DNA from: an uncultured Eubacteriales bacterium
Lineage (GTDB): Bacteria; Bacillota; Clostridia; Oscillospirales; Acutalibacteraceae
Assembly: GCA_900317025.1 (NCBI GenBank)
Contig: ONFG01000008.1
Location: 24,965-73,731, forward strand
DNA: 48,767 bases
Direction of reading: 5' to 3'
The translations under genes and the position numbers were made by a program. Under the pieces are notes generated by a model. It was given only the letters and a program-made list of their open reading frames with translations. It made no database searches and was not told where the DNA came from. Below are positions 23,304 to 47,500 of this stretch, piece by piece. Within the stretch, counting starts at the first letter, position 1. Each line of letters begins with the position of its first letter.

Positions 23304-23368
23304 ATTACAAATGCAAAACCGTGGGCGCGGCTCACAGAATGAGAAAGCGAAAGATGGGAGTGGCTTTT

Positions 23369-24454
23369 ATGAGAGCAAGCGAAAGAATGAGCAGGGCGGC
23401 GGCGCTGAGCTTTGCGGCGCTGATGTCGGTCTTCGGCGTGGTCTGCACCTGCGGGAGGATCAGCTCGTTATCAGGCAGCGGAGCAACGCTCACGGCCGCC
23501 GCAGGACTTGCGATGGTGCAAAGCACCCCCTCGACCGACTTTGAAAAAAAGCCCGATAACGTTTCCGGCGCAGATCCGGCGAGCGATACCGACAGCTTCC
23601 TCGACAGCGACTCAGACACAGAGCTTGCCGACCTCGTGCCAGACTCCGACACCGACCACACCGGGGAAAACACCTACCTTGTGACGGAAAGCCTTTACCG
23701 CGAGTCGAACATGAGCCTCAACAACTTTTACGTAAAGAACGCGACCGACCTTAGCCTTGATCTGCGCGGCTTTCTCTCGGCAGACCTTCCCTACTCTTAC
23801 GAAAAGACAGACGAGCCGCAGGTGCTTATCGTCCACACCCACGCCACGGAATCGTACATGGACAGCGACCTCGGCTACTATTACGAGAGCTTCTACCCTC
23901 GCAGCACCGACGACAGCCGCAACGTTGTCAGGGTCGGCGAAGCAATCTGCGAGAGCCTAAAAAAAGAGGGCGTCGAGTCGATACACTGCAAGGAGCACCA
24001 CGACGACCCGTCGTATCTCGGGGCATACGACAACAGCGCCGAGTCGATAAACCGCTGTCTTGAAGAGTACCCGTCGATCAAAATAGTGCTCGACATTCAC
24101 CGCGACAGCATAACGACAGACGAAAACGAGAAGATAAAGCCGACGTTTACATACGGCGGCGAAAAGGCGGCGCAGATAATGATAATGTGCGGCAACGACA
24201 ATTACGGCTACTACGATTTCCCCGACTGGGAAGAAAACATGAGCCTCGCCGTAAAGCTCCAGAGTACCGCCGAAACGAAATACCCCGGCATGACGCGTCC
24301 GCTTTACTTCGGCAACTTTATGTATAACATGAACCTCGACCCCGGCTCGCTGCTGATTGAGGTCGGAACAGACGCCAACACGCTAAGTGAGGCTGTACGC
24401 TCCGGCGAGATGCTCGGCAGCGTCATCGCGGACGTTCTGAAAAGCGCACAATAA
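23369..24454 (+). CDS. spoIIP: Stage II sporulation protein P (peptidoglycan amidase/endopeptidase)
   Basis: SpoIIP works with SpoIID and SpoIIM to degrade septal peptidoglycan and drive engulfment of the forespore. The 361-residue product has an N-terminal membrane anchor (residues ~10-50), then a Ser/Asp-rich linker (residues ~70-105, with repeated SDTD/SDSD). The SpoIIP catalytic domain follows: VLIVHTHATESYMD, DDSRNVVRVGEAICESLKKEG, IVLDIHRDSI and LLIEVGTDANTLSEAVRS. I start at the ATG at 23369, 8 bases after GGGAG; upstream in-frame ATG and GTG codons lack a good ribosome binding site. A SigE-like promoter lies upstream. This gene is the clearest evidence that the organism makes endospores. 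Confidence 0.95.
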   Translation: MRASERMSRAAALSFAALMSVFGVVCTCGRISSLSGSGATLTAAAGLAMVQSTPSTDFEKKPDNVSGADPASDTDSFLDSDSDTELADLVPDSDTDHTGENTYLVTESLYRESNMSLNNFYVKNATDLSLDLRGFLSADLPYSYEKTDEPQVLIVHTHATESYMDSDLGYYYESFYPRSTDDSRNVVRVGEAICESLKKEGVESIHCKEHHDDPSYLGAYDNSAESINRCLEEYPSIKIVLDIHRDSITTDENEKIKPTFTYGGEKAAQIMIMCGNDNYGYYDFPDWEENMSLAVKLQSTAETKYPGMTRPLYFGNFMYNMNLDPGSLLIEVGTDANTLSEAVRSGEMLGSVIADVLKSAQ

Positions 24455-24486: not shown

Positions 24487-25893
24487 TTATTCGTCGTAGT
24501 CGTATTCGTAATCGTTGCCGTCGTCATAGGAGTAGTCGTCGTAAATCCCGCCGCCTGCACCGTCGTCGTAGCCGGTGTTTTCGTTGTCGTAATCAGACGC
24601 GCCGTTGTCCTCGTCGGAGCTTTCGACTATGCCGATCTGGTTGTTGATACCCACGTCGTAGATGTATTCGATCTCGTTCGGGTCTTTCTCGTCGCTGTCG
24701 CTCGAATCGGAGTCCGAACCTTTCTTCTTGTCGGAGTCAGAATCGGAATCGGAGTCGGAGTCGTTGTCCGGCGCGCCGTCTTTAAGGCTGCCGTGAGTCG
24801 CCTGCGTGCGCAGCGTCTCGAGGGAATAGACTCTCGTGTCGGTGACGGTATAGGTGTTCATAAGATAAAGCACGTCGGTAATACCGAACTCGTCGATCAT
24901 CTCCATGAGGTTCGCGCTCAGATAGTCGTAAGACACAACGTAGATCTGCGAGAAAGAGCTTGTAAAGAACGTCGGCAGCACCGTGCCATACTCGTCCTTC
25001 ACCAGCAGCAGCTTGCGCCCGTTATCGACCTTTGTGTCGATACGCAGGCAGTAGAAACCGCCCTTGTAGTAGCCGCTCTGGAGGTCTTCCTCGTTTTCCT
25101 CGTAGAACTTATCGGTGCTGGCGAAGGTGAATTCGTCGTCGTAGTAATTTGTCGTGTACTTCACAGTCGGCGCGTAGAAGCTGAATTCGTCGGGCTGCTC
25201 CTTGAAGTCGAGATAAGCCTGATCGCCCGAAAGAGCGGTAAGGTCGCCGACGTATTCCTTCGGCGCCGTTTTATTATACTCCGATATGTCGGCGTAAGGC
25301 ACGCCCGCCGCTTTTGCAAAGACCTTGCCGGCGTAATACGCGCCGAGCGGCGTCCAGCGGCTGTCCGTCCTGTAGTAGATATCCTCTGCGTTGTGGTTTC
25401 TGAGCGTCGGCAGAACGTCTACCTGCTGCACGCCGATAAGCATCTCCTTGACGCTCTGGATTATCTCCTCCTGGCTGTCGATAAGGTAGCGCTCGTTTGC
25501 CGGGCAATAAAGCTCGCACGCCGTCGGCACGATCATCGAGTACATCTTGACCTTCGGCGAGACGGTATTCTTCTGCTCGTTCAGCTCGCTTGCATAGAAC
25601 TCGAGGCAGCCCGAGCCAAGCGTCATCGTGTACGCCTCCATGCCGCGCTTTTTGCCGTCCTGTTCGGCGACGATTATGCTGCCGGATTCGTAGCATTCGG
25701 CGTCTTCCTTGTCGTAATCCTTATGTTCGCCGATGTCGGTGTCTTCCTCCGGTTCAGGCTCCGGTTCGCCGACCGTTGCCACGGAGTCGGATACAACAGG
25801 CTCAGGCTCCGTCTTCTTCTCGCAGCCGGCAAGCGGCGCAGCGAACGTCAGCGCCAATGCGCAGGCGATAAGCCTCAAACTCAGATTTTTCAT
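24487..25893 (-). CDS. DHHW-family lipoprotein with altered signature residues and acidic SD/DY tail
   Basis: The 468-residue protein has a lipoprotein signal (lipobox LAGC, Cys24), an acidic linker, a domain at ~55-370 resembling the DHHW family, and a long acidic tail. In the family the signature is D-H-H-W-T-P-x-G, and a later motif reads KDSY. Here the first reads TDSRWTPLGAYYAG (Asp177, Trp180) and the second VKDEYGTVLPTFF, so both His and the Ser are replaced. This suggests a non-catalytic relative. Family members are SGNH/AlgX-like and linked to O-acetylation of surface polymers. Residues 376-402 are mostly Ser-Asp repeats and 433-468 mostly Asp, Tyr and Gly. I start at the ATG after GAGGAGAT; the frame upstream is not plausible protein. 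Confidence 0.72.
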   Translation of the reverse strand: MKNLSLRLIACALALTFAAPLAGCEKKTEPEPVVSDSVATVGEPEPEPEEDTDIGEHKDYDKEDAECYESGSIIVAEQDGKKRGMEAYTMTLGSGCLEFYASELNEQKNTVSPKVKMYSMIVPTACELYCPANERYLIDSQEEIIQSVKEMLIGVQQVDVLPTLRNHNAEDIYYRTDSRWTPLGAYYAGKVFAKAAGVPYADISEYNKTAPKEYVGDLTALSGDQAYLDFKEQPDEFSFYAPTVKYTTNYYDDEFTFASTDKFYEENEEDLQSGYYKGGFYCLRIDTKVDNGRKLLLVKDEYGTVLPTFFTSSFSQIYVVSYDYLSANLMEMIDEFGITDVLYLMNTYTVTDTRVYSLETLRTQATHGSLKDGAPDNDSDSDSDSDSDKKKGSDSDSSDSDEKDPNEIEYIYDVGINNQIGIVESSDEDNGASDYDNENTGYDDGAGGGIYDDYSYDDGNDYEYDYDE

Positions 25894-25918
25894 ATACACA
25901 TCTCCTCTTTTCCTTTTT

Positions 25919-26473
25919 TTATGAAAGACTGCACACGGCAAGCGTGAACTCGCCGAAGTCGCGCAGAAAATACCGTCCCTCGCAGTTTGAAAGGCGCCCC
26001 TGCAGTTCGCCGTCAAACCCGAGGATATCAAAATTTATCTCGTCCATCGGGAACGCCATGCCCATTCCGATCGCCTTGATGTAGCTCTCTTTGAGCGCCC
26101 ACAGGTGAATGAACGCGCGGCTCTTGTCGGTCGCGGCGGCTATGTAGTCAAGCTCTTTCCCTCGGCAAAGCTTTCTTATAAGCCCCTCTTTTATGCTTCT
26201 GGTCACCTGAACATCAACGCCGACCGGGTACGCGCTCACGGCGGCGGCGGCAAAGTCACCGCTGTGGCTTATGTTGAATTGGATATCGCTGCCGGCAAAG
26301 TACGGCTTGCCGTGCTTGCCGCGCCGCATATCGAGCGTTGATAAGTCGGCGGCGTAAACGTCCTTCACGGCGTACCGAAGCAGCTCCATGCCGTTTCCGC
26401 TCTCGGCTTTTTTGCGCTCGCCGCGGGAGACGCCCGAATAATCGTACCTTTGAAGGTACACAATGCAGCCCAT
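25919..26473 (-). CDS. 4'-phosphopantetheinyl transferase, Sfp type
   Basis: The enzyme would move phosphopantetheine from CoA to the serine of a carrier protein. The 184-residue product shows the family order: KPYFAGSDIQFNISHSGDFAAAAVS (the NISHS substrate loop), VGVDVQ (residues 84-89, first metal-binding Asp87) and WALKESYIKAIGMG (metal-binding Glu and the KExxxK helix). Sfp usually has Asp-x-Glu in the second motif; Gln89 replaces the Glu. It is shorter than Sfp (~225). No polyketide, NRPS or ACP gene is in the window, so the target is unknown. Start and rqcH stop overlap as TGATG, pointing to translational coupling. Confidence 0.88.
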   Translation of the reverse strand: MGCIVYLQRYDYSGVSRGERKKAESGNGMELLRYAVKDVYAADLSTLDMRRGKHGKPYFAGSDIQFNISHSGDFAAAAVSAYPVGVDVQVTRSIKEGLIRKLCRGKELDYIAAATDKSRAFIHLWALKESYIKAIGMGMAFPMDEINFDILGFDGELQGRLSNCEGRYFLRDFGEFTLAVCSLS

Positions 26474-28209
26474 CAGCGCACCTCCGCCGACGGCTTGACG
26501 TAAACCGTCCTGTTCTTCACGAAGATGACCGTGCCGGGGCGCGCGCCCTGCGGCTTGCTTACATTTTTAACAAGCGTGTAGTCGACCGGCACCTGCGAGC
26601 CGTCCTTCGCACGGCTGTGGTATGCGGCGATGGCTGCCGCCTGCATGATGCTCTCGTCGCCCGGCTCTCTGCCGTTAGTGACGAGTATCGTGTGTGAGCC
26701 GGGAATGTCCTTCGTGTGGAACCAAAGGTCGCTCTTTGCCGCGGTTTTGAGCGTTAGCTGGTCGTTCTGTCGGTTGTTGCGCCCGACGAGGACGGTAAAG
26801 CCCTCAGTCGTTCTGAATTCGAGCGGTGGCAGAGGCTTTTGCTCCCTGCCCTTGCCCTTTGGCGCTTTGATGTAGCCCGTCATGACAAGCTCCGAGCGAA
26901 TCTCCGCAAGCTCCCGCTCCGTCTCAGCTCGGGAAAGCGAATCGAAAACGTTGTCGAGATATTCAAGCTCGCGCTCGGCAAGCTCTATCTGCTCTGTGAG
27001 AACGTGCTCGGCCGTTTTCGCCTTGCGATAGTCCTTGTAATATTTCTGGGCGTTCTGCGACGGCGACTTCGACGGGTCGAGGCTCACCCGCACAGTACCC
27101 ATATTTTCATCGTAAAAATTGTCTAAAACAGCGAAAGGCGCGCCCTTTTCTATCTTGTAAAGGTTCGCCTGGATAAGGTCGCCGCAAATTCTCAGATGCT
27201 CCCTGTCGGCGCACTTTTCAAGCTCCGCCCTCTGGGTGTTGATCTTCCTGGCAGCGCGCTCCGAGGCGTTCGTCAGAAGCTTTAAAAGATCCTGCGACTT
27301 CGCGCGCATTCGCTCCGCCTTGTCGCGCTCACTGTAAAATCCGTCGAGAAGCGCCGAAAAGCTCTCGGCGCGCTTGACCAGGTAGATAGAACCGTACTGC
27401 GTGATTTCCATGAAAGACATATCCTTCGGCTTGCCGTTTTCGTCGTAAATGCAGTAAGGCGCTCCATCAATGCCGCGCACGCTTTCGGAAAGCTTCGTTA
27501 TATAATACGAAAGGCGGTTTTTGTAGTTGGAGGTGAGCCTGTCGGAATACTCGACGCTCCCGCCGCCGATGCGGTAGTCGATCTCGCGGCTTATAACGGG
27601 CGAGATGCCCAGCACGGAGCGAAGTATCGCCTTGTCGAGCTTGTCGGCTTCGGCGATCACCCTTGAAACGATCTCCTCCGGCTCGTGATCGAGAACGGAA
27701 AGCTTGTCCTGCGCGGGCGGCAGCGCGTACTTCATGCCGGGCAGCACGATGCGCTGAGACGTCATCGAGGGGTCGACGCGCTTTAATGCGTCGACGACGT
27801 TTTCCTCGCCGTCTAAGAATATTACATTAGAGTACCTGCCCATTATCTCGCAGGCAAGAGTATACTTCGCGCTGTCGCCAAGCTCGTCTGTCGCGTCAAA
27901 GTCGATGAAGACGATCCTTTCAAGCCCGGGCTGCCTTACTCCGCTTATCTTAGCGCCGGAGAGCTTCTTTCTCAGAAGCATACAGAGCATCGGCGGAGAA
28001 GCCGGGTTTTCGGGTGCGCTCTCGGTAAAGCTCACCCTGGGCGAGTTCGCGCGGGCGCTTATGAGCAGCTTGCGTGAGCCTTCGTTCGTCCGCAGGTTCA
28101 AAACGAACTCGTCCTTGTTCGGCTGGTGTATCTGCGACACTCGCGCACCTGTGAGAGCTTCGTTCAATTCATTTGTCAAAAAGCGCACAAACACGCCGTC
28201 CAGCGCCAT
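26473..28209 (-). CDS. rqcH: NFACT-family protein RqcH (ribosome quality control)
   Basis: The 578-residue protein has the N-terminal NFACT-N domain (MALDGVFVRFLTNELNEALTGARVSQIHQP, LACEIMGRYSNVIFLD, PGMKYALPP), a central helix-hairpin-helix and coiled-coil region (~280-440) and the NFACT-R domain at the C-terminus (TVLVGRNNRQNDQLTLKTA, SDLWFHTKDIPGSHTIL, AAAIAAYHSRAKDGSQVPVDYTLVKNVSKPQGARPG). RqcH binds 50S subunits blocked by peptidyl-tRNA and adds alanine tails to stalled chains; older annotations call it a fibronectin-binding protein. Family length and order are normal. Confidence 0.95.
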   Translation of the reverse strand: MALDGVFVRFLTNELNEALTGARVSQIHQPNKDEFVLNLRTNEGSRKLLISARANSPRVSFTESAPENPASPPMLCMLLRKKLSGAKISGVRQPGLERIVFIDFDATDELGDSAKYTLACEIMGRYSNVIFLDGEENVVDALKRVDPSMTSQRIVLPGMKYALPPAQDKLSVLDHEPEEIVSRVIAEADKLDKAILRSVLGISPVISREIDYRIGGGSVEYSDRLTSNYKNRLSYYITKLSESVRGIDGAPYCIYDENGKPKDMSFMEITQYGSIYLVKRAESFSALLDGFYSERDKAERMRAKSQDLLKLLTNASERAARKINTQRAELEKCADREHLRICGDLIQANLYKIEKGAPFAVLDNFYDENMGTVRVSLDPSKSPSQNAQKYYKDYRKAKTAEHVLTEQIELAERELEYLDNVFDSLSRAETERELAEIRSELVMTGYIKAPKGKGREQKPLPPLEFRTTEGFTVLVGRNNRQNDQLTLKTAAKSDLWFHTKDIPGSHTILVTNGREPGDESIMQAAAIAAYHSRAKDGSQVPVDYTLVKNVSKPQGARPGTVIFVKNRTVYVKPSAEVR

Positions 28210-28244
28210 TTCCTTTCCCTCCTGTTAATTAAGTCAACAACTCC

Positions 28245-28273
28245 ATTATACAACATACCAAGGGAAATTTCCA
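28245..28273 (-). promoter_or_regulatory. Possible promoter of rqcH
   Basis: Minus strand TGGAAA, 17-base spacer, TATAAT, about 35 bases before the ATG. The region 28274-28394 between this and the family A copy shows no gene. Confidence 0.45.
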
Positions 28274-28394
28274 CTAATATTTTTAATATATTTCCCATCA
28301 CGCAGGGGCGCAAATTGAATGAAAAGGACTATAACGAAAATGCAGCGTGTTTATAAGCCATGAGCAGAGCCAAAGCCACACAGAATAAAAGCTA

Positions 28395-28499
28395 AGCTTT
28401 TTAATTGAGTTTGTATGAGACGGGATGACGCGCCTTGCGCGGCATCAGCGTGCGCAGCACGCGAATTTCAAATTAAAGCATTTAATTTGAAATTAGTAT
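28395..28499 (+). repeat. Family A MITE-like element, short copy 1
   Basis: About 105 bases. It shares with the 149-base copies the blocks TATGAGACGGGATGACGCGC, GCGTGCgcaGCACGC, the 12-base palindrome with a GCA loop (TTTCAAATTAAA and its complement) and the end TTAGTAT. It lacks the GCGCCgcaGGCGC block and the ATACTAA left end; its left edge is AAGCTTTTTAATTGAG. Confidence 0.85.
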
Positions 28500-28534
28500 C
28501 AGAAATCATTCAGTATCCATTTTTTCACAAAAGC

Positions 28535-28568
28535 CGCGCTCCCCCGCAAGTCTGACTTACGGGGGAGC
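28535..28568 (-). terminator. Terminator after the 1585-residue protein gene
   Basis: Stem GCTCCCCCG / CGGGGGAGC with a 13-base loop, then GCGGCTTTTG on the minus strand, about 32 bases past the stop codon. Confidence 0.7.
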
Positions 28569-28599
28569 TTTGTTATGTCAAGATGTTAAATGTCATGGA

Positions 28600-31500
28600 T
28601 CACTGCTCGAGCACCTTTGTGATGTGCTCGCAGTTGCGCTCGTTGAACTCGAATCTCAGCGAGCCTTCGTTGAGAACTACAACACTGTCTGCCGGAACGG
28701 TGTACTTTCTGAGTATCTCACGGTAGTTGACGATCTCGTAGTCCTTTACGATCGAGGCATTGTCGCCGAAGAAGCGCTTCATCTCGAATTCGTCGCTGAA
28801 TACGAGCACCTTCTTGACGCCGTTCTTGTCGTCGATCGTGATCGGGCGGAGGTCACTTCTGTCGTTGCCGTACATCGGGAGAATGTATCTCGCCGTTGTG
28901 AACTCACGGATCATACGCTTCTCGAGCGAGCGTACTTCCTGCTCCTTGTTCGGGTTCGTAGACTTCGTCTGAAGCTTCTGGAAGAGCGTCGTCATGCTGA
29001 ACATAAGCTCGGGGTTCATTACGGGGATCTTCACGTAATCTCTCTCGTAAACGTCGAGCATCTCGGAGATGCGGTTCGTCTGAATGATGATCCAGTGACC
29101 CGTCTCGTCAAGAACGAGGTCTTCAATGCCGTGGCGTCTGAACTCGAAGAGCATATTGAAAATATCCTTCGATCTGTACTCCTGGAGATAAACCTTGATG
29201 TTTGCCTTGGCAAAGTTCTCAACCGACTTCTCTGCAAGGTACTTGTCGGAGAAGATGTGACCCTTGTTGTTGCCGTCGATGAGGATATGCCTTGTGTGTG
29301 CATCGAACTCGGCGTACATCACGTCTGCCGACGCGATCATCTTCGCAAGATCGCGGTAGCAGCCGTCGAGCTTGTCGCGAAGCTCCTTGGCTGTCATCGG
29401 GTCGCCCTCAACCTCGAGAGATCTCTGGGTCGCCTTCGTCTTGGCCGCCTGATCCTGGATCGTGAAGCCGCCTCTCTGCTGAGCGCCGGACGGTTCGCCG
29501 TACATCAGGCTCGAAAGGTCGAACATATCGTTCTTTCTCTCGTTCTCCTGTGCGATCTCGCTGAGCACGGTGTTGACGCCCTTTGTCTTTGCGTCGGTCG
29601 GCTTTGTCGTTGCGGGAGCGGAGCTTACGATACCGTCGGAGTACGGTGTCGCCATAATCTCGTCCTCGGGAACGTCCTCAATGAAGAGCGGCTTCGACAC
29701 CTTGAACGCCTTCTTCACCTTGCCGCCGTCGGTGCCGTCGGAAACGGAGTTGATAACGAGACCCTCGGGGTTCTCGGTCGCGTCAAGCTGACGCTTTGCA
29801 GCCGACTGGATCGGGTCGGGCTTCGGCGCGGTAGCAGGTGCGGGGGCGGGAGCCGCCGACGCCGTCGGAGCCATGAAGTCGTAAGAACGCTTCTGCGCAG
29901 ACTCATAAATGCTCTTCTGCTGCATTCCGTTGCCCTTTGCTATCTGGTTGCTGCCGTATATGTTCTTCTTTGCAAAATCGTTGTTGGGAAGCTCGATCGG
30001 GGGCTTCTCGTGCGGTGCGCCCTGCGGTCTGTAATAGCTGCTCGGTGCAGCCTCCTCCGGCTCGAATACGTCGGGATCGTCCGCAAGGCCGGAAAGATCG
30101 AGGCTCGGGAGGTTCGGGCTGTCGCCGCCAAGCTTCAGGCCGTCAAAAGGAGACTTCTTCTCCTCTTCGTCGTTGAAGAAGATGCCGCCGCCTGCCGCAG
30201 GCGTTTTAAGAGCCGCGCCTGCCGCTGCCGGAGGTGCGAATCCGCCCGGCTTGCCTGCGAATGCTGCTGCCGCTGCCGGAGGGATACCGAACGGTACCTT
30301 AGCCTTTGCAGCAGCCGTCTCCGCCTTGGCCTTTGCTTCTTCTGCCGCCTTGGCCTTTGCCTCGGCTTCTGCCTTTTCCTTCTTTGCTTCCTCGAGCTTT
30401 GCCTCTTCTTCCTTTTCCTTGGCTGCCAGCTGTGCCTCGGCTGCCTCTGCGGAAGCCGCTGCCTTCTCGGCCTTTTCGGCTCTCTCGTCTGCCGCCGCTC
30501 TTGCCGCCTCTGCCGAGGAAGCCGCCTTCACTGCTTCTTCGGCGGTGATCTTAGCTGTCTCTGCTTCGCGGATAGCTTCTTCGAGCTTCTTCTTTGCTTC
30601 TTCAAGCTCCTGCTTCGACTGCTCTGCGTCGCGCATAGCCTGCTCGGCTGCCTTGTCGGCTGCTTCGGCGTGAGCCTTCTGCTCGGCCACAGCCTTGTCT
30701 GCCTCTGCCTTAATGTCGTCAATGACCTTCTGCTCTGCCGCCTTCTTCTCGGCGCGCTTCTTCGCTGCAACATCGTCTTCAAGGTCAAACGGGTTGACGA
30801 AGGAGTCGATATTCTTCAGGCGCTCGTCGTTCTCGTCAACGATCGCCTTGTCATAGTTGGGCTTAGCACCCTTGAGGATCGACTTGTTCATGATAAAGCC
30901 GAGGCTCGCCGGGTTGATGATGAAGTGAGTCACGCCACGGTAAGCGAGAAGTCTCGTTTCGATTTCATAAAGGCCCCTGAACGGCATACCCACGCTTCTG
31001 GCTTCGGTGAAGTCTGTGAATACGGGGCAGAAGTTGTTCTTGCCGTCGGTAAATGTGAGGGGCTTGAAATCGTCTATATTTTCATCGGTTATCTCTGTGA
31101 TGTCCTGATTGAGCGCGTAGGTGTATACTTTGCTGCCAAGGAACGACTCGGCGATCGCGCTTCTGAGCGTATCGTCGCCCTTCTGCATGAAGTTGAGCAC
31201 CTTGAAGTAGAGCTTCGGCGCAATAACGCCCTCTGTCTTGACGTGGCTGTCGAAGTCTTCGGGAGCGTAAACGTGGCTGCTGTCGTTGTTGACGATGATC
31301 TTCTTGAGACCGAAGCGCTTGAGGTCGTCGAAGAACGCGCCCTTTTCGTCGATCTCCTGGGCGATCGTGTCTTCGATGCCAAGCTCCGCGGCTCTCTTGA
31401 CGGTGCATACGTTGACGCAGAACTCATCGTCAAGATACGGATAATTCGTTACGAGCGAATATGTGCAATAGATCTCGGTAGCAGCCTTGATATCCTCGAT

Positions 31501-33357
31501 GTTCTTCTCGACGGGATCGACCACCGTGACTTCGAGCTTCGCCTTTACAAGTTCCTCCATACACGACGAGCAGATGTTCTTGTTGTCGAAGAAGAAGAGG
31601 TCGGACTCCTTATAGCGATTGTTGCAGATAGCGCAGTTCGTTATCTTGTTGGAGTTCTGGCGCTTCTTCGTACCGCCCATGTTGATCCTCTCGGTAACGG
31701 GGGGCAGATTCGTCTTTGTGGAGGTCGTCTCGACTGCGGCGGTGGCATTTGTCGTTCTTGTGATGTCGTAGTCGTAGATGTCGCCGTCGGGAGTACGGAT
31801 CTCCTTTACGGCAAAGTCGCCGGGGCGGCGCTGACGGTTTTTCCACATATTCAGCTCACGCTGCGGCAGCGGCGCTATCTCGCCGTTGATGACCTTGAAG
31901 GTCGCGCCTCTGCGCGAGTCGCTGTAAATGCGGAAATATTCGTTTTCGAGGAGCAGCTTCATCGTGGGCGTTTCCTCGAATTTTACTCTCTTCTGGTCCA
32001 TTCCCTTTGCGACCTCCTGCATCAATGCGGGAGCATCTGCCGGAGCGGCGGTAGCGGACTTTGCGGGCGTACCCTTTACGCCGTTCATCTCGGGAACGTG
32101 TACATCGTCGGGGATAACGACGGGTACGGGTGCGGTAACAACGGGAGCCGCCGTGAGTGTACCGTCATCGTTGATCTTGGAGATGAGGTAGTCGAACGGC
32201 TTGCCCGTGGAGTCTTTAACGGTAGTGATAACAAAGCCTGCGGGGTTCTTTACCCTGTTCTTCCACATATTCAGCTCGCGCTGCTCGATGTTCACGATCT
32301 CGCCGTCGATGACCTTGAACACCTTCGACGCGCGCTTGTCTTTGTAGAACTTGCAGAACTCCGTCTCAAGCAGAAACTCGGTCGTGTCGTTATCCTGGAA
32401 CTTTACGCGGTCGGTCGGTCTCTCGCCCACCGTCTCGTTGTTCCTCGGTACTCGCTGGCGATGTGCCGGCGCGGGAGCTGGAGCAGGTCTGACCGCCGAT
32501 GCCGGCGCGGGTGCGGGTGCTGCCGCGGGAGCCTTTGCAAGTGCAGGTGCGGGCTTTACTGCCGCTGCGGGTGCAGGTGCGGCTGCGGGAACAGGAGCGG
32601 GTACTGCCGCGGGAGCCTTTGCAGGTGCAGGCGCGGGCTTTGCCGCAGGAGCGGGAGCAGCGTCTGCTGCCGGCTCTGCTCTTTCTATTTTATAGTCGTA
32701 AGGCTTGCCGTCAGCGTCGTTGATGATCGTAACGACGAAATTGCCGGGGTTCTTAGTTCTGTTCTTCCACAGATTAAGCTCACGGACCTCTATATTGGAG
32801 ACCTCGCCGCCGATGACCTTAAACGTCCTGTTTGTACGCTTGTCGCGGAAGACGGGAAAGAGATCGTTCGCGAAGATCTTCTCTACGTCGGGTGTTTCCT
32901 CAAACTTGATCCTGGATTCCTTATCCGATTCAGCGATCAATTCAACTTTTGGCTTTGCCGCCGCTCTTGCCGGTACGGGCGCGGGTGCTGCCGGTCTTGC
33001 CGGGGAGGGTGCAGCTGGTCTTGAAGCTGCTGCCGGGGCTGCCGGAGCAGGCATCGGAGCCGAAGCGGAAGCCGGTGCGGGAGCGGGAGCCTGCGCGCCT
33101 CTTGCCACCCTTGCGATCTTGTAGTCGCAGATATTCCCCTTGGCGTCCTTAACGGGGGTGACGACGAAGCCGGCGGGGTTCTTTTTGCGGTTTTTCCACA
33201 AATTGATCTCGCGAAGCTCAATCGGCACGATCTCGTTGTTTATGACCTTATACGTTTTGCTCGCTCTGGAATCGTTGTAGATCTTGCAGAATTCATTCTC
33301 CACAACGAGCGTGATGTTGTCATTCATTTCAAATTTGGTCCTATTTGCATCGGGCAT
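28600..33357 (-). CDS. 1585-residue multidomain protein with four WKNR repeats, zinc ribbon, coiled coil and SseB-like segments
   Basis: I do not recognise this protein as a whole. There is no signal peptide or membrane segment, so it is cytosolic. Four copies of an ~80-residue domain lie at about 8-85, 150-228, 317-395 and 457-535. Each has an (F/Y)-x-(V/K/R)-(F/Y/I)-x-D-(K/S)-R start, FKVI-x-GE(I/V), RELN-x-WKNR, then NP-x-x-F-VV and a final G-x-x-YDY-x-I. The linkers are long Ala/Pro stretches. A zinc ribbon follows (C575, C578, C596, C599). Segments at ~628-830, ~1345-1420 and ~1490-1570 recall the SseB N-terminal fold (PVFTDFTEA; HIFSDKYLAEKSVENFAK; LVFSDEFEMKRFF). Residues ~863-1019 form a Lys/Glu/Ala coiled coil and 1020-1318 a Pro/Gly/Ala-rich disordered part. 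Start: ATG with AAGGAG 8 bases upstream, not the overlapping GTG. Monocistronic. Confidence 0.9.
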   Translation of the reverse strand: MPDANRTKFEMNDNITLVVENEFCKIYNDSRASKTYKVINNEIVPIELREINLWKNRKKNPAGFVVTPVKDAKGNICDYKIARVARGAQAPAPAPASASAPMPAPAAPAAASRPAAPSPARPAAPAPVPARAAAKPKVELIAESDKESRIKFEETPDVEKIFANDLFPVFRDKRTNRTFKVIGGEVSNIEVRELNLWKNRTKNPGNFVVTIINDADGKPYDYKIERAEPAADAAPAPAAKPAPAPAKAPAAVPAPVPAAAPAPAAAVKPAPALAKAPAAAPAPAPASAVRPAPAPAPAHRQRVPRNNETVGERPTDRVKFQDNDTTEFLLETEFCKFYKDKRASKVFKVIDGEIVNIEQRELNMWKNRVKNPAGFVITTVKDSTGKPFDYLISKINDDGTLTAAPVVTAPVPVVIPDDVHVPEMNGVKGTPAKSATAAPADAPALMQEVAKGMDQKRVKFEETPTMKLLLENEYFRIYSDSRRGATFKVINGEIAPLPQRELNMWKNRQRRPGDFAVKEIRTPDGDIYDYDITRTTNATAAVETTSTKTNLPPVTERINMGGTKKRQNSNKITNCAICNNRYKESDLFFFDNKNICSSCMEELVKAKLEVTVVDPVEKNIEDIKAATEIYCTYSLVTNYPYLDDEFCVNVCTVKRAAELGIEDTIAQEIDEKGAFFDDLKRFGLKKIIVNNDSSHVYAPEDFDSHVKTEGVIAPKLYFKVLNFMQKGDDTLRSAIAESFLGSKVYTYALNQDITEITDENIDDFKPLTFTDGKNNFCPVFTDFTEARSVGMPFRGLYEIETRLLAYRGVTHFIINPASLGFIMNKSILKGAKPNYDKAIVDENDERLKNIDSFVNPFDLEDDVAAKKRAEKKAAEQKVIDDIKAEADKAVAEQKAHAEAADKAAEQAMRDAEQSKQELEEAKKKLEEAIREAETAKITAEEAVKAASSAEAARAAADERAEKAEKAAASAEAAEAQLAAKEKEEEAKLEEAKKEKAEAEAKAKAAEEAKAKAETAAAKAKVPFGIPPAAAAAFAGKPGGFAPPAAAGAALKTPAAGGGIFFNDEEEKKSPFDGLKLGGDSPNLPSLDLSGLADDPDVFEPEEAAPSSYYRPQGAPHEKPPIELPNNDFAKKNIYGSNQIAKGNGMQQKSIYESAQKRSYDFMAPTASAAPAPAPATAPKPDPIQSAAKRQLDATENPEGLVINSVSDGTDGGKVKKAFKVSKPLFIEDVPEDEIMATPYSDGIVSSAPATTKPTDAKTKGVNTVLSEIAQENERKNDMFDLSSLMYGEPSGAQQRGGFTIQDQAAKTKATQRSLEVEGDPMTAKELRDKLDGCYRDLAKMIASADVMYAEFDAHTRHILIDGNNKGHIFSDKYLAEKSVENFAKANIKVYLQEYRSKDIFNMLFEFRRHGIEDLVLDETGHWIIIQTNRISEMLDVYERDYVKIPVMNPELMFSMTTLFQKLQTKSTNPNKEQEVRSLEKRMIREFTTARYILPMYGNDRSDLRPITIDDKNGVKKVLVFSDEFEMKRFFGDNASIVKDYEIVNYREILRKYTVPADSVVVLNEGSLRFEFNERNCEHITKVLEQ

Positions 33358-33379
33358 TGAAATCACTCCTTCTCATAAA

Positions 33380-33408
33380 ATTTTACTATATTTCAGGTTG
33401 TTTTTCAA
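33380..33408 (-). promoter_or_regulatory. Possible promoter of the 1585-residue protein gene
   Basis: Minus strand TTGAAA, 17-base spacer, TAAAAT. The predicted start would leave only a few bases before the ribosome binding site, so an alternative upstream promoter is possible. 33409-33632 is very AT-rich and holds no gene. Confidence 0.45.
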
Positions 33409-33632
33409 TAGAATTTATAAGTTTTTTTATTAAAAATTTTTATTTTCTTTCACTTTTCATAAACTTATTCGATTTTGTACAAATTCGAGCTTCTATTTTT
33501 GTCACAATAATCTCATCAAGGCAAAAATTCAGCAAATTAGACAAAAGACAGGCTATCTTTTTTTGAATTGCGACATCACGAATATGAAACTTGAAAAAAT
33601 TGGTAAATAATGCGAAAGCTAAGATAACATTA

Positions 33633-33661
33633 TTGACAACAATGCCGATAAATGTTAAAAT
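33633..33661 (+). promoter_or_regulatory. SigA-type promoter of the ArsR-family gene
   Basis: TTGACA, 17-base spacer, TAAAAT. Predicted start near 33668, about 134 bases before the ATG. Confidence 0.75.
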
Positions 33662-33710
33662 CTAACCGTTGGAATACAAGATATTTTTACATTTAGTTAT
33701 AGAAATGATT

Positions 33711-33726
33711 ATAGAAATTTTTCTAT
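33711..33726 (+). promoter_or_regulatory. Palindrome, candidate ArsR-family operator
   Basis: ATAGAAA-TT-TTTCTAT is a palindrome with a 2-base centre, with an extra ATAGAAAT half-site 12 bases upstream. It lies between the promoter and the regulator gene, as expected for autoregulation by an ArsR-type repressor. No binding data. Confidence 0.4.
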
Positions 33727-33801
33727 ATATATCTGAATTTAGTATATAGATTCATCACGAACAATAGTTAAGATTTTATATGAATATTATGGGAGGTAAA
33801 T

Positions 33802-34116
33802 ATGAAACAGACATACATTGATATCTCAAAGATCATGAAAGCTCTTTCCGACCCCAAGCGTCTGCGCATCGTGGATATGCTGTCGCAAGGGGAGCTTTGC
33901 GCGCGCAATATCCAGACCGCTTTTAACATCTCACAGCCGACTCTTTCCCACGACATGAGGGTGCTGAAAGAAGCCGGCATCACGGCGGAGCGCCGCGATG
34001 CCGGCTTCTATTCTCTCGACTACCGAACGCTCCACGGACTTAAAAACTCGCTTGCGCTCATTTTCAACGAAGAAAGCAGCTACCTCTCGCCCGACGACGG
34101 CGCAAAAGCAAAATAA
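33802..34116 (+). CDS. ArsR-family winged-helix transcriptional regulator
   Basis: The 104-residue protein has the ArsR/SmtB fold: SDPKRLRIVDMLSQGELCARNIQTAFNISQPTLSHDMRVLKEAGITAERRDAGFYSLDYRTLH, with the recognition helix around SQPTLSHDMRVLKEAG and a beta wing after it. Classical arsenic sensors have ELCVC in the first DNA-binding helix; here it is ELCAR, so only one of the two cysteines is present and no clear metal site remains. The ligand is unknown. A strong GGGAGGT precedes the ATG. It is monocistronic, between its own promoter and a terminator, so its regulated genes beyond itself are not evident here. Confidence 0.9.
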   Translation: MKQTYIDISKIMKALSDPKRLRIVDMLSQGELCARNIQTAFNISQPTLSHDMRVLKEAGITAERRDAGFYSLDYRTLHGLKNSLALIFNEESSYLSPDDGAKAK

Positions 34117-34131
34117 CAGCACGATGTAAAC

Positions 34132-34162
34132 GGTATGGACGGAAAAGTCCATGCCATTTTTT
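34132..34162 (+). terminator. Terminator after the ArsR-family gene
   Basis: GGTATGGAC / GTCCATGCC (one T-G pair), 6-base loop, then A and T6. The T-tract is shared with the left edge of a family A element. Confidence 0.8.
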
Positions 34163-34258
34163 AATTGAGTTTGTATGAGACGGAATGACGCGCTTTGCGC
34201 GACATCAGCGTGCGCAGCACGCGCATTTCAAATTAGAGCATTTAATTTGAAATTAGTT
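34157..34258 (+). repeat. Family A MITE-like element, short copy 2
   Basis: About 102 bases with the same order of blocks as copy 1: TTTTTTAATTGAG, TATGAGACGGAATGACGCGC, GCGTGCgcaGCACGC and the long GCA-loop palindrome (one mismatch). The right end, GAAATTAGT, has lost the final bases. It starts in the terminator T-tract of the preceding gene. Confidence 0.85.
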
Positions 34259-34386
34259 TAGTGTACAAGCAAATGAGCTCTTCGTATTTAACGGACACAT
34301 AAATCAAACTCGCGATAAACTGTGAATAAGTGCGATTTCGTGAGAATTAGTAAGATTTCGAGATCTAATTTGTTCTAAATGCTGTT

Positions 34387-34459
34387 TTTGACCTTTTTTG
34401 ACCTTGACTTTTACTGACTTTAGTCATATAATGAAGTCACAAGATCAAAGAAAGTCAAA
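34387..34459 (+). promoter_or_regulatory. ctsR promoter with two CtsR operators
   Basis: TTGACT (34404-34409), 17-base spacer, TATAAT (34427-34432). Directly against the -35 lies TTTGACC-TTT-TTTGACC (34387-34403), which is the CtsR heptad repeat read on the other strand. Past the -10 lies GATCAAA-GAA-AGTCAAA (34443-34459), a second copy with one mismatch. Two operators flanking the promoter predict tight autorepression of ctsR-mcsA-mcsB-clpC, released on heat or protein stress. Confidence 0.9.
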
Positions 34460-34488
34460 AGCAAATAATATTTCGGAAGGTGAGTATA

Positions 34489-34947
34489 ATGCGTATAAGC
34501 GATTTGATCGCCCAATATATTATGGATATGCTCGAGGAGAACGGTCACGACGACTCCTCCGCCACGATCAAGCGAAACGAGCTTGCCGAGACCTTAGGCT
34601 GCGTACCCTCGCAGATTAACTACGTCATCACCTCGAGGTTCACCCCCGAACAGGGCTACATCGTTGAGAGCAGACGCGGCGGCGGCGGTTACATCAAGAT
34701 CACCAGAATCAGCATGGATAAGCATTCCGCCATCATGCACCTTATGGAAAGCGTTGGTGACAGCATCGACGCGGGCGCGGCAGCGTCGCTCATACAGGAG
34801 CTTCTTACAAGAGGCATGATCGACCTGCCAACAGCAAAGCTCATAATCGCCGCGACGGCAGAGCGCCCGTATCAGGCTCTTCCGGCAGAACAGCGTGACG
34901 CGCTCAGAGCGGCGATCCTCAAAAATATCCTGCTGACGATGGGCTAG
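34489..34947 (+). CDS. ctsR: Transcriptional repressor CtsR
   Basis: CtsR represses clp and other protein-quality genes by binding tandem heptads. The 152-residue protein starts MRISDLIAQYIMDMLEENG and has the DNA-binding HTH (IKRNELAETLGCVPSQINYVITSRFTPEQGYIVESRRGGGGYIKI). The glycine-rich wing tip (RRGGGGY) is the heat-sensing element known for the family, and the C-terminal dimer domain follows. I start at the ATG at 34489, which follows AAGGTGA; an in-frame GTG lies inside that site. It is first in the operon, under two CtsR boxes. Confidence 0.97.
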   Translation: MRISDLIAQYIMDMLEENGHDDSSATIKRNELAETLGCVPSQINYVITSRFTPEQGYIVESRRGGGGYIKITRISMDKHSAIMHLMESVGDSIDAGAAASLIQELLTRGMIDLPTAKLIIAATAERPYQALPAEQRDALRAAILKNILLTMG

Positions 34948-39512: not shown

Positions 39513-40439
39513 TTACCCCTTATACTCCGTGACTTCGATCGTCTCGATCGTCACAGGCTCTACAGGCTTGTCGTTCGCGTCTGTCTCAACTGCTGCGATC
39601 TTGTCAACAACGTCCATGCCGTCATAAACCTGCGCGAATACGGTGTGACCTCTGTCAAGCGCGTTGAATGCGCCGTCAAGCGACGGGTTGCCGCCCTGCT
39701 CTTCATAAAGCTTCCTGATGTCGTCTGAGACAAGGTCGGTGTTGTAGAACGCCGTGTAAGACATACTGTACATAGTGAGGAAAGACTCAAGCTGACCTGC
39801 GTCCTGGTAGGAGCAGAGAGCTTCGTAAAGACCCTTCCAATTCTCTTCGAGCGCGCTGAAGCTGGCAGTCTTCGACTGGTTGATGAAGAACTGGCTGCCG
39901 TTCGTGTCGGGGCCGCTGTTTGCCATTGCGACCGAACCTCTGATGTTGAAGAGCTTGTTTGAGAACTCGTCTTCAAAGTTGCCGCCGCCAACGCTCTCGC
40001 CGCCGGTACCGTCACCCTTGGGATCGCCGCCTTGGATCATGAAGTCATTGATAACTCTGTGGAACGTAAGTCCGTCGTAGTAGCCGTCTTTAGCGTGCGT
40101 AAGGAAGTTCTCGACCGTCTTCGGAGCGGCGTCCGGGAAGAACCGCATCGAGATGTCGCCCATCGACGTATGCATGATGGCGATCTCCTCGCCCTCTGCG
40201 GGCATATCGAGCTGGTAGCCGACCTTGTGCTCGGTGTCGTCGTAGTAATCCGCCGTAAGACCGAGGTCTTTAAGGTCGTATTTTGTAGGCTCGGATGAAG
40301 CTGCCGCCGACGAAGCCGCGGAAGAAGCCGCCGACGAAGCGGAAGAAGCGTCGCCCGACTCGCTGCCGTTACAGCCGGAAAACGCGGAGCAGATCAGTAT
40401 TGCTGCTGCAAGAACGGCCGCCGAATACTTTTTAAACAT
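39513..40439 (-). CDS. Cyclophilin-type peptidyl-prolyl isomerase lipoprotein
   Basis: The 308-residue protein has a lipoprotein signal (lipobox FSGC), a Ser/Ala repeat linker (residues ~28-50) and a cyclophilin domain: [59 protein letters not shown], then [17 protein letters not shown], and [20 protein letters not shown]. The catalytic Arg is in FHRV. An insertion of ~75 residues between FFINQ and the last part of the barrel is larger than in small cyclophilins. It would help fold exported proteins at the outer face of the membrane. I start at ATG 40439 after GGAG; the longer frame begins in the leader. The gene is bracketed by two inverted family A elements. Confidence 0.93.
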
Positions 40440-40529
40440 ATTTCTTCTCTCCTTTGTTAATGCCGACCGCCGCAAAAGGGATCCTGTATTCCGGCGCTCG
40501 GTGTTTTGCTGTTAAAAGTCACCTTCCCT

Positions 40530-40889: not shown

Positions 40890-40909
40890 GAATGGTTTGT
40901 TTATCTGAA

Positions 40910-44494
<3,585 letters not shown>

Positions 44495-44514: not shown

Positions 44515-47500
44515 TTAATACTCGTCGTCGCCGTAGAGATCGTCGTTCTCATCCTCGTCAGTGAGGTATTCGTCGATATCGTCTCCGTCGTCGTCATAAT
44601 CGTCGTCGCCGCTGAAATCCTCGTCATCGTAGAATTCATCGTCGTTGTAAGCGTCGTCAAGCACGTCGGAATCGCCGAAAATGCTCTTGTTCTCGGGGTT
44701 GTCGTCGGGTGAGAAGCCCTTCATGTCTTTAGCCGTAAGAACGCTCTTTCCGGGGAACGCACTGTTTTCTACTGCCTTCGGGTTGGTCTCCTCGTCGAGA
44801 TCCTGCTTCAGGTCGATCTCTTCGCCGTCTTCGCCAATAACTCTTACGTCAAGAGCAAGCGACTGCAGCTCCTTGATAAGGACCTTGAACGACTCGGGGA
44901 TACCCGGCTTCGGAATATTCTCGCCCTTTACGATCGACTCGTATGTTTTTACACGTCCGACAACGTCGTCCGACTTGACCGTAAGGATCTCCTGGAGCGT
45001 GTAAGCAGCGCCGTAAGCCTCGAGCGCCCAAACCTCCATCTCACCGAAGCGCTGACCGCCGAACTGAGCCTTACCGCCGAGCGGCTGCTGAGTTACGAGC
45101 GAGTACGGACCTGTGGAACGGGCATGGATCTTATCGTCAACGAGGTGATGGAGCTTTAAGTAGTACATATAGCCAACGGTTACGGGGTTGTCGAAGTACT
45201 CGCCCGTTCTGCCGTCTCTTACAAGCGTCTTACACTCCATCGAGATGCCTTCCTTCTCGAAGCACTCGGTGAAGTCGATATATTTCGGGGAAGCCGGCGG
45301 CGGAAGCTCGCCGTTCTTCGCCTTTACAGCAATATCCTTGTAAATCTCGAAGATATCCTGCTCGTGTGCGCCGTCGAATACCGACGTCATAATCTTCCAG
45401 CCAAGAGCCTTTGCGGCGTAGCCGAGGTGGACCTCAAGCACCTGACCGATGTTCATACGTGAAGGTACGCCGAGCGGGTTGAGCACTATGTCAAGCGGCG
45501 TGCCGTCGGGCAGGAAGGGCATGTCCTCCTGCGGAAGTATCCTCGAAACGACACCCTTGTTTCCATGGCGGCCGGCCATTTTGTCGCCGACGGAGATCTT
45601 TCTCTTCTGAGCGAGGTAGCAGCGAACGACCTTGTTTACGCCCGGCTGCAGCTCGTCGCTGTTTTCTCTTGTGAACACCTTGACGTCTACGACCGTGCCG
45701 CACTCGCCGTGGGGAACACGAAGAGACGTGTCTCTTACTTCTCTTGCCTTCTCGCCGAAGATCGCGCGCAGAAGTCTTTCCTCCGCCGTAAGCTCGGTTT
45801 CGCCCTTCGGAGTAACCTTGCCGACGAGAATGTCGCCCGTCTTTACCTCTGCGCCGATGCGGATAATACCGTCTTCGTTGAGGTTTTTGAGCATATCGTC
45901 GCCGACGTTCGGGATCTCACGAGTGATCTCCTCCGGTCCGAGCTTCGTCTCTCTTGCTTCCGTCTCGTACTCCTCGATGTGGATAGAGGTGTAGTAGTCG
46001 TCTCTTACCATCTTCTCGTTGAGGAGAACGGCGTCCTCGTAGTTGTAGCCTTCCCATGTCATGAAGCCGATGAGGGCGTTCTTGCCGAGGGAGATCTCGC
46101 CGTGGTCTGTAGCCGGGCCGTCTGCAAGGACATCGCCTTTCTTTACTCTCTGACCAACCTCGACGATCGGGATCTGGTTTATGCACGTGCCCTGGTTGGA
46201 GCGCAGGAACTTCGTTACCTCATACTCGACTACTCTGCCGGTATCGTCGAGAACCGCGCCGTCGCCGTGGCTGTCGTATCTTACCGTGATGAGGTCTGCG
46301 CTGACCTGAGTAACGACGCCGTCGTCCTCTGCGAGGATACAAACGCCGGAGTCAACGCCCGCCTTGTACTCGATACCCGTTCCGACGATCGGAGCCTCGG
46401 TAACGAGGAGCGGCACTGCCTGCCTCTGCATGTTCGAGCCCATGAGCGCACGGTTCGCGTCGTCGTTCTCGAGGAAGGGGATCATCGCCGTAGCGACCGA
46501 TACGACCATTCTCGGCGAAACGTCCATGTAGTCGAAGCGATTTGCTTCAAGCTCTACGAACTCGTCTCTGTACCTGCCGTGGACTTTCTTTCTGACGAAA
46601 CGGTGCTGCTCGTCGAGCGGCTCGTTCGCCTGAGCAACGACGAACTCGTCCTCCATGTCGGCAGTCATATATACTACCTCGTCGGTAACGACGCCGGTAG
46701 CCTTGTCTATCTTTCTGAAAGGAGCCTCTACGAAGCCGTAGGAGTTTACTCTTGCGAACGTCGCAAGGTAGGAGATAAGACCGATGTTCGGTCCTTCAGG
46801 CGTCTCGATCGGGCACATTCTTCCGTAGTGGCTGTAATGAACGTCGCGGACCTCGAATCCGGCACGGTCTCTCGAAAGACCGCCGGGACCGAGCGCCGAA
46901 AGACGTCTCTTATGTGTAAGCTCTGCGAGCGGGTTGTTCTGATCCATGAACTGCGACAGCGGCGAGGAGCCGAAAAACTCCTTGATGGCAGCCGTAACGG
47001 GGCGGATATTGATGAGCGAGGTCGGCGTGATGCCGGAGAGATCCTGCGCCTGGAGCGTCATTCTCTCGCGAACTACTCTTTCAAGTCTCGAGAAGCCGAT
47101 CCTTACCTGGTTCTGAAGAAGCTCGCCTACGCAGCGGATGCGGCGGTTGCCGAGGTGGTCGATGTCGTCGGTCGTACCGATGCCGCAGGCAAGGTTGTTC
47201 ATATAGTTGACGGAAGCGAAGATATCGTCGATCGTGATCGTGTTGGGAACGAGGTCGTTCCTTCTTCTTACGCACTCATCGATAAGATCCTCGCCCTCAA
47301 GACCGCTGTCGAGGATCTCACAGAGGACCGTAAAGCGGACCTTTTCGTCGATCTCGCACTTCTCCTTGATGTCGAAATCGACGTACTTCGTCATGTCTAC
47401 CATGCCGTTGGAGATGACCTTGATAACAGTGTCGTTCTCGAGCTTTACGAGGACTTCTCTTACTCCTGCGTTTTCGATCTCGAGCGCCTGCTCGCGGGTG

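What the first reader, a model, noticed from the sequence alone, without database searches (positions are those of the whole stretch)
28600..33357. Large cytosolic protein built from four copies of an unrecognised ~80-residue 'RELNxWKNR' domain plus zinc ribbon, coiled coil and SseB-like segments
Four domain copies share a clear pattern (FKVI-x-GE, RELN-x-WKNR, NP-x-x-F-VV, G-x-x-YDY-x-I) and are separated by Ala/Pro linkers of roughly 60-90 residues. They are followed by a C4 zinc ribbon, an ~155-residue coiled coil and at least three stretches that look like SseB-type alpha/beta modules. I know of no described protein with this order. The layout (repeated binding domains on stiff linkers, an oligomerising coiled coil, no membrane segment) suggests a scaffold or structural protein. 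That role is inference; the repeats, ribbon and coiled coil are visible.
Basis: partly seen in the sequence, partly recalled or inferred. Interest (0 to 1): 0.82.

Follow-up and report, generated by a model that had tools for sequence, protein, structure and literature searches.

The report
Genus-specific four-repeat SseB-like cytosolic protein
A large, strongly conserved protein found so far only in one genus of uncultured gut bacteria combines four copies of a small domain that matches nothing known with a zinc-binding finger and peptide-chaperone-like modules; what it does has not been shown.

Summary
Window 28600-33357 (-) encodes a 1585-residue protein with no membrane segment, its own conserved promoter and ribosome site. 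Four ~80-residue repeats are homologous (34-45 of 83 identities; best of 1000 shuffles 16). The repeat has no significant match in Pfam, PHROGs, PDB sequences or PDB/viral folds. All 14 relatives with an intact start have exactly four copies. A C4 zinc site is invariant. The 'SseB-like' guess is right: Pfam SseB scores near its cut-off across relatives (reached in 2), and the C-terminal model matches Tic22, the peptide-binding chaperone family to which SseB has been linked in print.

Corrections. The 'coiled coil' is Ala/Glu/Lys-rich and clear in only 8 of 20 relatives. The protein is not spread across Oscillospirales: it is in 21 of 22 genomes of one genus, and profiles of its parts found no convincing relative elsewhere among 245 genomes of the order and 388 of the phylum. 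The scaffold role is untested.

The two SseB-like blocks are about as conserved as ClpC, and codon use resembles rpoB/rpoC, so this is probably an important, well-expressed protein. Best reading: a multivalent cytosolic client-binding (chaperone-like) hub, confidence 0.38. New domain family and new architecture on a known superfamily.

The parts
33475..33482 (-). TTGTACAA palindrome, possible operator, upstream of the promoter
   Evidence: Found in the 200 bases before the start codon in 9 of 15 sequences (window, L038-L043, L049, L051; in the last two it lies further upstream than in the others); L044 has TTGTTCAA.
33380..33417 (-). Conserved sigma-70-type promoter (window: TAAATTCTATTGAAA ... 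TATAGTAAAAT; TTGAAA, 17 bases, TAAAAT)
   Evidence: TTGAAA-17-TAAAAT in 13 of 15 upstream sequences, ending 21-23 bases before the start codon; not in L054, L055; the exact 15-base TAAATTCTATTGAAA in 7 of 15; promoter scan.
33366..33373 (-). Ribosome binding site AGAAGGAG
   Evidence: Sequence; AAGGAG before the start in the 14 loci compared.
28600..33357 (-). Whole gene, 1585 aa
   Evidence: found in 21 of 22 genomes of the genus.
33103..33348 (-). Repeat R1 (residues 4-85)
32671..32916 (-). Repeat R2 (residues 148-229)
32167..32409 (-). Repeat R3 (residues 317-397)
31747..31989 (-). Repeat R4 (residues 457-537); predicted strand-strand-strand-strand-helix-strand-strand, pLDDT 72-83 per block of 10 over model residues 11-80
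32917..33102 (-). Ala/Pro linker 1 (residues 86-147)
   Evidence: fast-evolving.
32410..32670 (-). Ala/Pro linker 2 (residues 230-316)
31990..32166 (-). Linker 3 (residues 398-456)
31543..31641 (-). C4 zinc finger/ribbon (residues 573-605; CxxC-17-CxxC)
   Evidence: Four Cys invariant in 20 of 20 rows; weak DUF4428, RING, LIM and ClpX-finger type matches, one of them over its cut-off (zf-C3HC4 in L057, 21.3 against 21). That zinc is bound is inferred.
31183..31515 (-). M1, SseB-like module by sequence pattern only (residues 615-725); invariant C631, C647, C651
   Evidence: Reading of the sequence; conservation; model too poor here.
30808..31182 (-). M2, SseB-like module (residues 726-850)
   Evidence: Pfam SseB residues 728-818, E 0.0013, 19.3 bits; 17 of 20 rows; over the cut-off in L045 and L051.
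30292..30762 (-). Ala/Glu/Lys-rich helix-prone stretch (residues 866-1022), not general in the genus
29431..30291 (-). Long low-complexity linker (residues 1023-1309)
29023..29430 (-). C1, helix plus SseB/Tic22-like module (residues 1310-1445)
   Evidence: Strand/helix order in the model nearly as in C2; fold hits of the C-terminal model.
28603..29022 (-). C2, SseB-like module (residues 1446-1585)
   Evidence: Pfam SseB residues 1479-1536, E 0.014, 16.0 bits; 10 of 15 rows; fold hits.

Best explanation
A cytosolic, multivalent client-binding hub. Shown: four homologous repeats on Ala/Pro-rich or loose linkers, an invariant C4 site, and SseB-type modules in two blocks (two modules with Pfam support, one more by the model, one by sequence pattern only), all in one chain without a membrane segment. 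Inferred: the SseB/Tic22-like modules bind unfolded or extended peptide segments, as proposed for that superfamily. Also inferred: the four repeats, tethered by flexible spacers, bind a common partner with avidity and so hold clients or partners together in the cytoplasm, with a housekeeping proteostasis role in this genus.
For: SseB matches in 17 of 20 and 10 of 15 rows, reaching the Pfam cut-off in 2. The C-terminal model matches Tic22 (4ev1 E 1.8e-4; 4e6z 9e-4) and TTHA0547 (2z0r, E 0.005-0.014, TM by target 0.66-0.70). PMC9503650 (passages read) links SseB to Tic22 peptide-binding chaperones and predicts a chaperone role. The M and C blocks are about as conserved as ClpC in the four loci where both could be compared: L038 M 0.927, C 0.909, ClpC 0.896; L039 0.842, 0.851, 0.790; L042 0.788, 0.792, 0.741; L045 0.888, 0.877, 0.839. 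Exactly four repeats in 14 of 14 loci with an intact N-terminus. Present in 21 of 22 genomes of the genus, with its own conserved promoter (13 of 15). Codon use near rpoB/rpoC (0.708 against 0.721-0.730; ClpC 0.645). In the window and in 5 of 20 loci it lies within about 6 kb of the ctsR-mcsA-mcsB-clpC genes.
Against: No client or partner is known. The window protein's own SseB scores are below Pfam's cut-off, and profile-profile tests were uninformative (even two true SseB sets of the genus did not match each other). The C model is modest (pLDDT 65.8, pTM 0.49); its Tic22 alignments have rmsd near 20 and TM 0.21-0.28, so at best single modules match. The M1 part is poorly modelled. The most recurrent neighbour, a cyclophilin, has by my reading a lipobox and would be exported, so it is an unlikely partner. 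Neighbours differ between sub-clades, so the clpC link may be plain synteny.
Confidence: 0.38

Rival explanations
1. Structural scaffold or condensate-forming protein: the repeats and low-complexity linkers organise a cytoplasmic assembly, and the SseB-like modules serve only as protein-protein adaptors.
For: Four tethered repeats, long low-complexity spacers, no enzyme family matched in Pfam or NCBIfam; codon use like rpoB/rpoC, as for an abundant protein.
Against: The Ala-rich helix meant to oligomerise is clear in only 8 of 20 relatives. The most conserved parts are the SseB-like blocks and R3/R4, not the linkers or R1/R2 (L038 and L039).
Confidence: 0.25
2. Regulatory or nucleic-acid-associated hub: zinc finger and repeats contact RNA, DNA or the transcription/translation machinery.
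For: Repeats carry invariant R, K, N and W positions and slight positive charge (+1 to +5); C4 site invariant.
Against: Charge is weak and mixed; no nucleic-acid-binding family matched significantly.
Confidence: 0.15
3. Part of an ADP-ribose or phage-conflict system, as SseB domains are in some gene neighbourhoods.
For: PMC9503650 passages; in another genome of the order an SseB domain is fused to ADP-ribosylglycohydrolase and macro domains (L059).
Against: No ADP-ribose enzyme among the ten window neighbours scanned with Pfam; no PADLOC match for residues 453-850 and 1310-1585; a near-universal, strongly conserved gene of one genus is unlike a patchy defence gene; no phage or plasmid match for residues 453-850.
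Confidence: 0.07

Closest known systems
SseB family (Pfam PF07179)
   Same: Modules M2 and C2 match the SseB N-terminal profile in 17 of 20 and 10 of 15 rows; two relatives reach the cut-off. C1 shows nearly the same strand/helix order in the model.
   Different: The window protein itself stays below the cut-off; here the modules stand in two blocks behind a zinc finger and four unrelated repeats. The genome also has two ordinary SseB proteins with open frames of 195 and 371 residues.
Tic22 family (peptide-binding import chaperones; 4ev1, 4e6z)
   Same: Foldseek match of the C-terminal model.
   Different: 9% identity, TM 0.21-0.28, rmsd near 20 (so a different mutual placement of modules); no export signal seen here, whereas Tic22 is periplasmic (reference title seen).
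TTHA0547 (2z0r)
   Same: About 95 residues of the C-terminal model superpose (TM by target 0.66-0.70).
   Different: A single small protein titled hypothetical.
TolA-type Ala/Lys/Glu helix (NCBIfam NF007065)
   Same: Composition of residues 863-1034 (E 1.2e-5, 24.5 bits against a cut-off of 213).
   Different: Low-complexity resemblance only; no membrane segment here.

Membership tests
SseB (PF07179) | Score at or above the Pfam gathering cut-off (21 bits) | tested here: inconclusive
   Window protein 19.3 bits (M2) and 16.0 bits (C2): not met. Orthologues L051 (21.4) and L045 (21.3) meet it for M2; of 20 fragments 453-850 these are the only two.
SseB (PF07179) | Consistent weak match across orthologues | tested here: met
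   17 of 20 rows (fragment 453-850) and 10 of 15 rows (fragment 1310-1585) at E 5 or better; best 3.1e-4 and 0.0012. L046, L048 and L050 gave none at E 0.05.
SseB/Tic22 superfamily | Fold of the module | tested here: inconclusive
   C-terminal model hits Tic22 with E 1.8e-4 and TTHA0547 with TM by target 0.66-0.70, but the model is of modest confidence.
SseB/Tic22 superfamily | Peptide/client binding | not testable with these tools
   Needs purified protein.
Any known family, for the RELNxWKNR repeat | Significant profile match in a curated library | tested here: not met
   Pfam best E 0.039 and PHROGs best 0.039, each family in 1-2 of 17 members; PDB sequences best 1.2; whole protein in NCBIfam gave only low-complexity matches.
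Any known fold, for the RELNxWKNR repeat | Fold match to a solved structure | tested here: inconclusive
   No PDB or viral match at E 0.001 or better for a model whose repeat part has pLDDT 72-83 over residues 11-80; the second structural aligner was not available.
Oligomerising coiled coil | Hydrophobic heptad a/d core | tested here: not met
   At most 16% LIVMFY at a/d in any register over residues 866-1022 (75% in one register if Ala is counted, so an Ala-coil is not excluded); not general in the genus.

The most novel reading that the evidence does not exclude
The repeat is a new domain family, possibly with an unrecorded fold. It may have arisen in the ancestor of one gut genus and been quadruplicated there before most of the genus diversified. 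Fused to SseB/Tic22-like modules, it makes an abundant, essential cytosolic client-organising machine that no other bacteria have.
Probability: 0.18. Interest if true: 0.75.

Novelty: new variant of a known kind. Interest (0 to 1): 0.5.

Why it matters
Genus-restricted genes usually evolve fast (general knowledge). Here one is kept in nearly every sampled species of a gut genus, with blocks conserved about as well as ClpC and a conserved promoter, yet its repeat has no name. It would add a domain family to the catalogues and give a testable case for cytosolic multi-module SseB/Tic22-type chaperones; the paper passages I read only predict such a role for SseB.

Tried and rejected
Second repeat-only paralogue: one search listed 303-348-residue repeat proteins in G012, G016 and G021. 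One search shows that each runs into a contig end and carries two repeats, while the main contig carries two. They are best read as pieces of one gene broken at its repeats, so there is no paralogue.

Matches outside the genus: G022, G035 and G038 align only to the Ala/Pro linker (query 214-307); G192 (E 5.5e-4, L033) is a SNF2-type helicase by my reading of its sequence, judged a chance hit; G187 (E 0.0046) has two stops in a 68-codon frame.

Profile-profile comparison of modules M1, M2, C1, C2 with two SseB sets: uninformative, because the two true SseB sets did not match each other either (E 0.032). M2 gave the best module-to-SseB value (E 0.0064; lowest of 24 shuffled comparisons 0.063); M1, C1 and C2 were at or near the level of the shuffles.

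Cyclophilin as partner: within 1.5 kb in 8 of 20 loci (L039, L042, L043, L045, L046, L048, L050, L055), in several orders and orientations, but its N-terminus carries a lipobox by my reading, so it should be outside the membrane. Not counted as support. Thirteen of the 20 loci have 0.3 kb or less on at least one side, so absence there means little.

Ribosomal-protein reference for codon use: L2 and S8 were not found in this incomplete genome, so rpoB and rpoC in the window served as reference; this is weaker and makes their own values high by construction.

Viral or plasmid origin: no relative of the repeat in viral contigs, none of residues 453-850 in phages or plasmids. Rfam: none over 28200-34500. 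PADLOC: none.

Literature: searches for SseB terms and Tic22 were seen as listings; only passages of PMC9503650 were read.

Full report
What is there. Window 28600-33357 on the minus strand is a single open frame of 1585 codons with an ATG at 33357 and AGAAGGAG just upstream. In order: R1 (4-85), Ala/Pro linker, R2 (148-229), Ala/Pro linker, R3 (317-397), linker, R4 (457-537), a C4 site (573-605), an SseB-like block (615-850), an Ala/Glu/Lys-rich stretch (866-1022), a long low-complexity linker (1023-1309), and a second SseB-like block (1310-1585). No 19-residue stretch exceeds 1.27 on the Kyte-Doolittle scale, so no membrane span; I see no signal peptide in the sequence.

The repeats. Pairwise ungapped identity is 34-45 of 83 for the six pairs; the best of 1000 shuffled sets reached 16. 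Across relatives the invariant columns of the 17-row repeat alignment A4 are R2, F5, R27, K33, N48, W50, K51, F60, G70, D74 and I77. In 14 of 14 loci that keep the N-terminus there are exactly four; L047 (three) and L052, L053, L056, L057 (two each) start at a contig end, and L045 starts after the repeats.

Age of the fourfold structure. Copies at the same position in different species are more alike (means 0.568, 0.584, 0.659, 0.659) than copies at different positions in different species (0.477-0.515). Copies within one protein lie between (0.509-0.550). On a tree of 60 repeats from 15 proteins the four labels need 6 changes (least possible 3; shuffled mean 33.4, none of 200 as low). Against a simple story, the tree has few columns and many open forks, no label forms one clean group, and R1 and R2 of the divergent pair L015/L016 fall together (97/78). 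So the fourfold structure predates most of the diversification of the genus, with possible exchange between copies in that pair.

No family for the repeat. It matches nothing significantly in Pfam (best E 0.039), PHROGs (0.039) or PDB sequences (1.2). In the model of residues 453-850 the R4 part is predicted as strand-strand-strand-strand-helix-strand-strand with pLDDT 72-83 per block of 10 over model residues 11-80, while the whole model is poor (mean 52.5). Foldseek found no PDB or viral match at E 0.001 or better.

C4 site and SseB-like blocks. C575, C578, C596 and C599 are invariant in 20 of 20 rows; so are C631, C647, C651 and C777 inside the first SseB-like block, which could be a second metal or redox site. 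Finger families match weakly, only zf-C3HC4 in L057 reaching its cut-off. Pfam SseB (PF07179) matches residues 728-818 (19.3 bits, cut-off 21) and 1479-1536 (16.0 bits) of the window protein. It is listed for 17 of 20 and 10 of 15 fragments. Of the 20 fragments 453-850, L045 and L051 reach the cut-off (21.3 and 21.4), while L046, L048 and L050 give nothing at E 0.05.

Fold of the C-terminal block. The model (pLDDT 65.8, pTM 0.49) shows the order strand-strand-helix-strand-helix-strand-strand-helix twice, with one extra three-residue strand in the second. It matches Tic22 (4ev1, E 1.8e-4; 4e6z, 9e-4) and TTHA0547 (2z0r, TM by target 0.66-0.70). The Tic22 alignments have rmsd near 20 and TM 0.21-0.28, so at best single modules superpose. 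M1 (615-725) looks like a further module by sequence pattern alone. A direct profile-profile test could not decide, since it failed on the positive control too. PMC9503650 (passages read; by Aravind and co-workers, authorship recalled) reports an SseB-Tic22 relation by HHpred and predicts a chaperone role for SseB. Its link to the Salmonella translocon protein of the same name may rest on the shared name; that doubt is my recollection, not a test.

What is not core. The stretch 866-1022 is 75% Ala, Glu and Lys, with 8% LIVMFY and a weak heptad core. It is clear in 8 of 20 relatives (L002-L009); in the others the stretch is shorter, P/E/V-rich or cut off. The linkers and this stretch evolve fastest.

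Distribution. The protein is found in 21 of 22 genomes of the genus; the one miss, G013, is 68% complete. The repeat profile hits 20 of 22 (misses G001, whose contig starts after the repeats, and G013), the hits lying in frames that are this gene or its contig-end pieces. Profiles of the two SseB-like blocks found only the own genome among 245 genomes of the order. The repeat profile gave two more hits there, which I judge chance. Among 388 genomes of the phylum each of the three profiles found only the own genome. The order and phylum samples overlap, and both were drawn from larger groups.

Named records. A pattern scan of 84,980 species genomes gave 20 loci, all titled uncultured Ruminococcus, Clostridiales or Clostridia; two titles name dairy cattle rumen and duodenum, and the RUG names of most others stand for rumen genomes (recalled). 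At least some are the same genomes as the unnamed ones (L041 and L004 agree in length and coordinates). The scan used two strict peptide patterns of the first SseB-like block and would miss distant relatives. No viral-contig match to the repeat; no phage or plasmid match to residues 453-850.

Conservation. Against L038: M block 0.927 identical, C block 0.909, R4 0.914, R3 0.877, R2 0.765, R1 0.695, linkers 0.688; ClpC 0.896, McsB 0.886-0.902 (two pieces), CtsR 0.852, RqcH 0.825. Against L039: M 0.842, C 0.851, ClpC 0.790, McsB 0.848, rpoC 0.957. Against L042: M 0.788, C 0.792, ClpC 0.741, McsB 0.821. Against L045: M 0.888, C 0.877, ClpC 0.839, McsB 0.862. So the conserved blocks are held about as tightly as ClpC and McsB, less than RNA polymerase.

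Promoter and codon use. TTGAAA, 17 bases, TAAAAT stands 21-23 bases before the start in 13 of 15 upstream sequences, not in L054 and L055; a TTGTACAA palindrome lies within 200 bases in 9 of 15. Codon use relative to rpoB and rpoC is 0.708, fifth of the 23 window frames that I scored and above ClpC (0.645); the reference set is small.

Neighbourhood. In the window the gene lies between an NFACT (RqcH-type) gene and a divergent ArsR-type regulator followed by ctsR-mcsA-mcsB-clpC (the names McsA and McsB rest on order and recall). The clp genes are near in 5 of 20 loci, the ArsR gene in 4 of 20, and a cyclophilin within 1.5 kb in 8 of 20. The cyclophilin carries a lipobox by my reading. Other sub-clades have other neighbours. 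I take this as weak context only.

Mechanism. What is shown is anatomy, homology, conservation and restriction to one genus in the samples searched. That the SseB/Tic22-like modules bind peptides or clients, and that the tethered repeats add avidity, is inference from the superfamily and the layout. I put about 0.38 on this client-binding hub, 0.25 on a purely structural scaffold, 0.15 on a nucleic-acid-associated regulator and 0.07 on an ADP-ribose or phage-conflict role; the rest is open.

Verdict. It is a new, genus-restricted repeat domain and a new architecture built on a known superfamily.

Noticed in passing
   Followed up: partly
window 28570-33024 (+), 40892-44236 (+), 45565-48105 (+): Very long open frames of 1484, 1114 and 846 codons antisense to this gene, rpoC and rpoB. 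As they also lie opposite rpoC and rpoB, they look like an effect of base composition, not genes.
   Followed up: partly
window 24487-26031 (-) and 23321-24454 (+): A DHHW/AlgX-like protein (Pfam E 1.7e-21) with a long Asp/Ser run near its C-terminus and, by my reading, a lipobox-like start; the neighbouring frame 23321-24454 also has an Asp/Ser-rich stretch.
   Followed up: no
window 33380-33482 (-): Well-kept promoter and a TTGTACAA palindrome in front of the gene, between it and a divergent ArsR-type regulator; the palindrome could be a regulator's operator.
   Followed up: partly
L054 and L055, upstream of the gene: The conserved promoter is missing and the region before the start codon is of different sequence, as if the gene had been moved or its promoter replaced.
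   Followed up: no
window 39513-40475 (-): A cyclophilin with a lipobox-like start is the neighbour that recurs most (within 1.5 kb in 8 of 20 loci, several orientations).
   Followed up: partly
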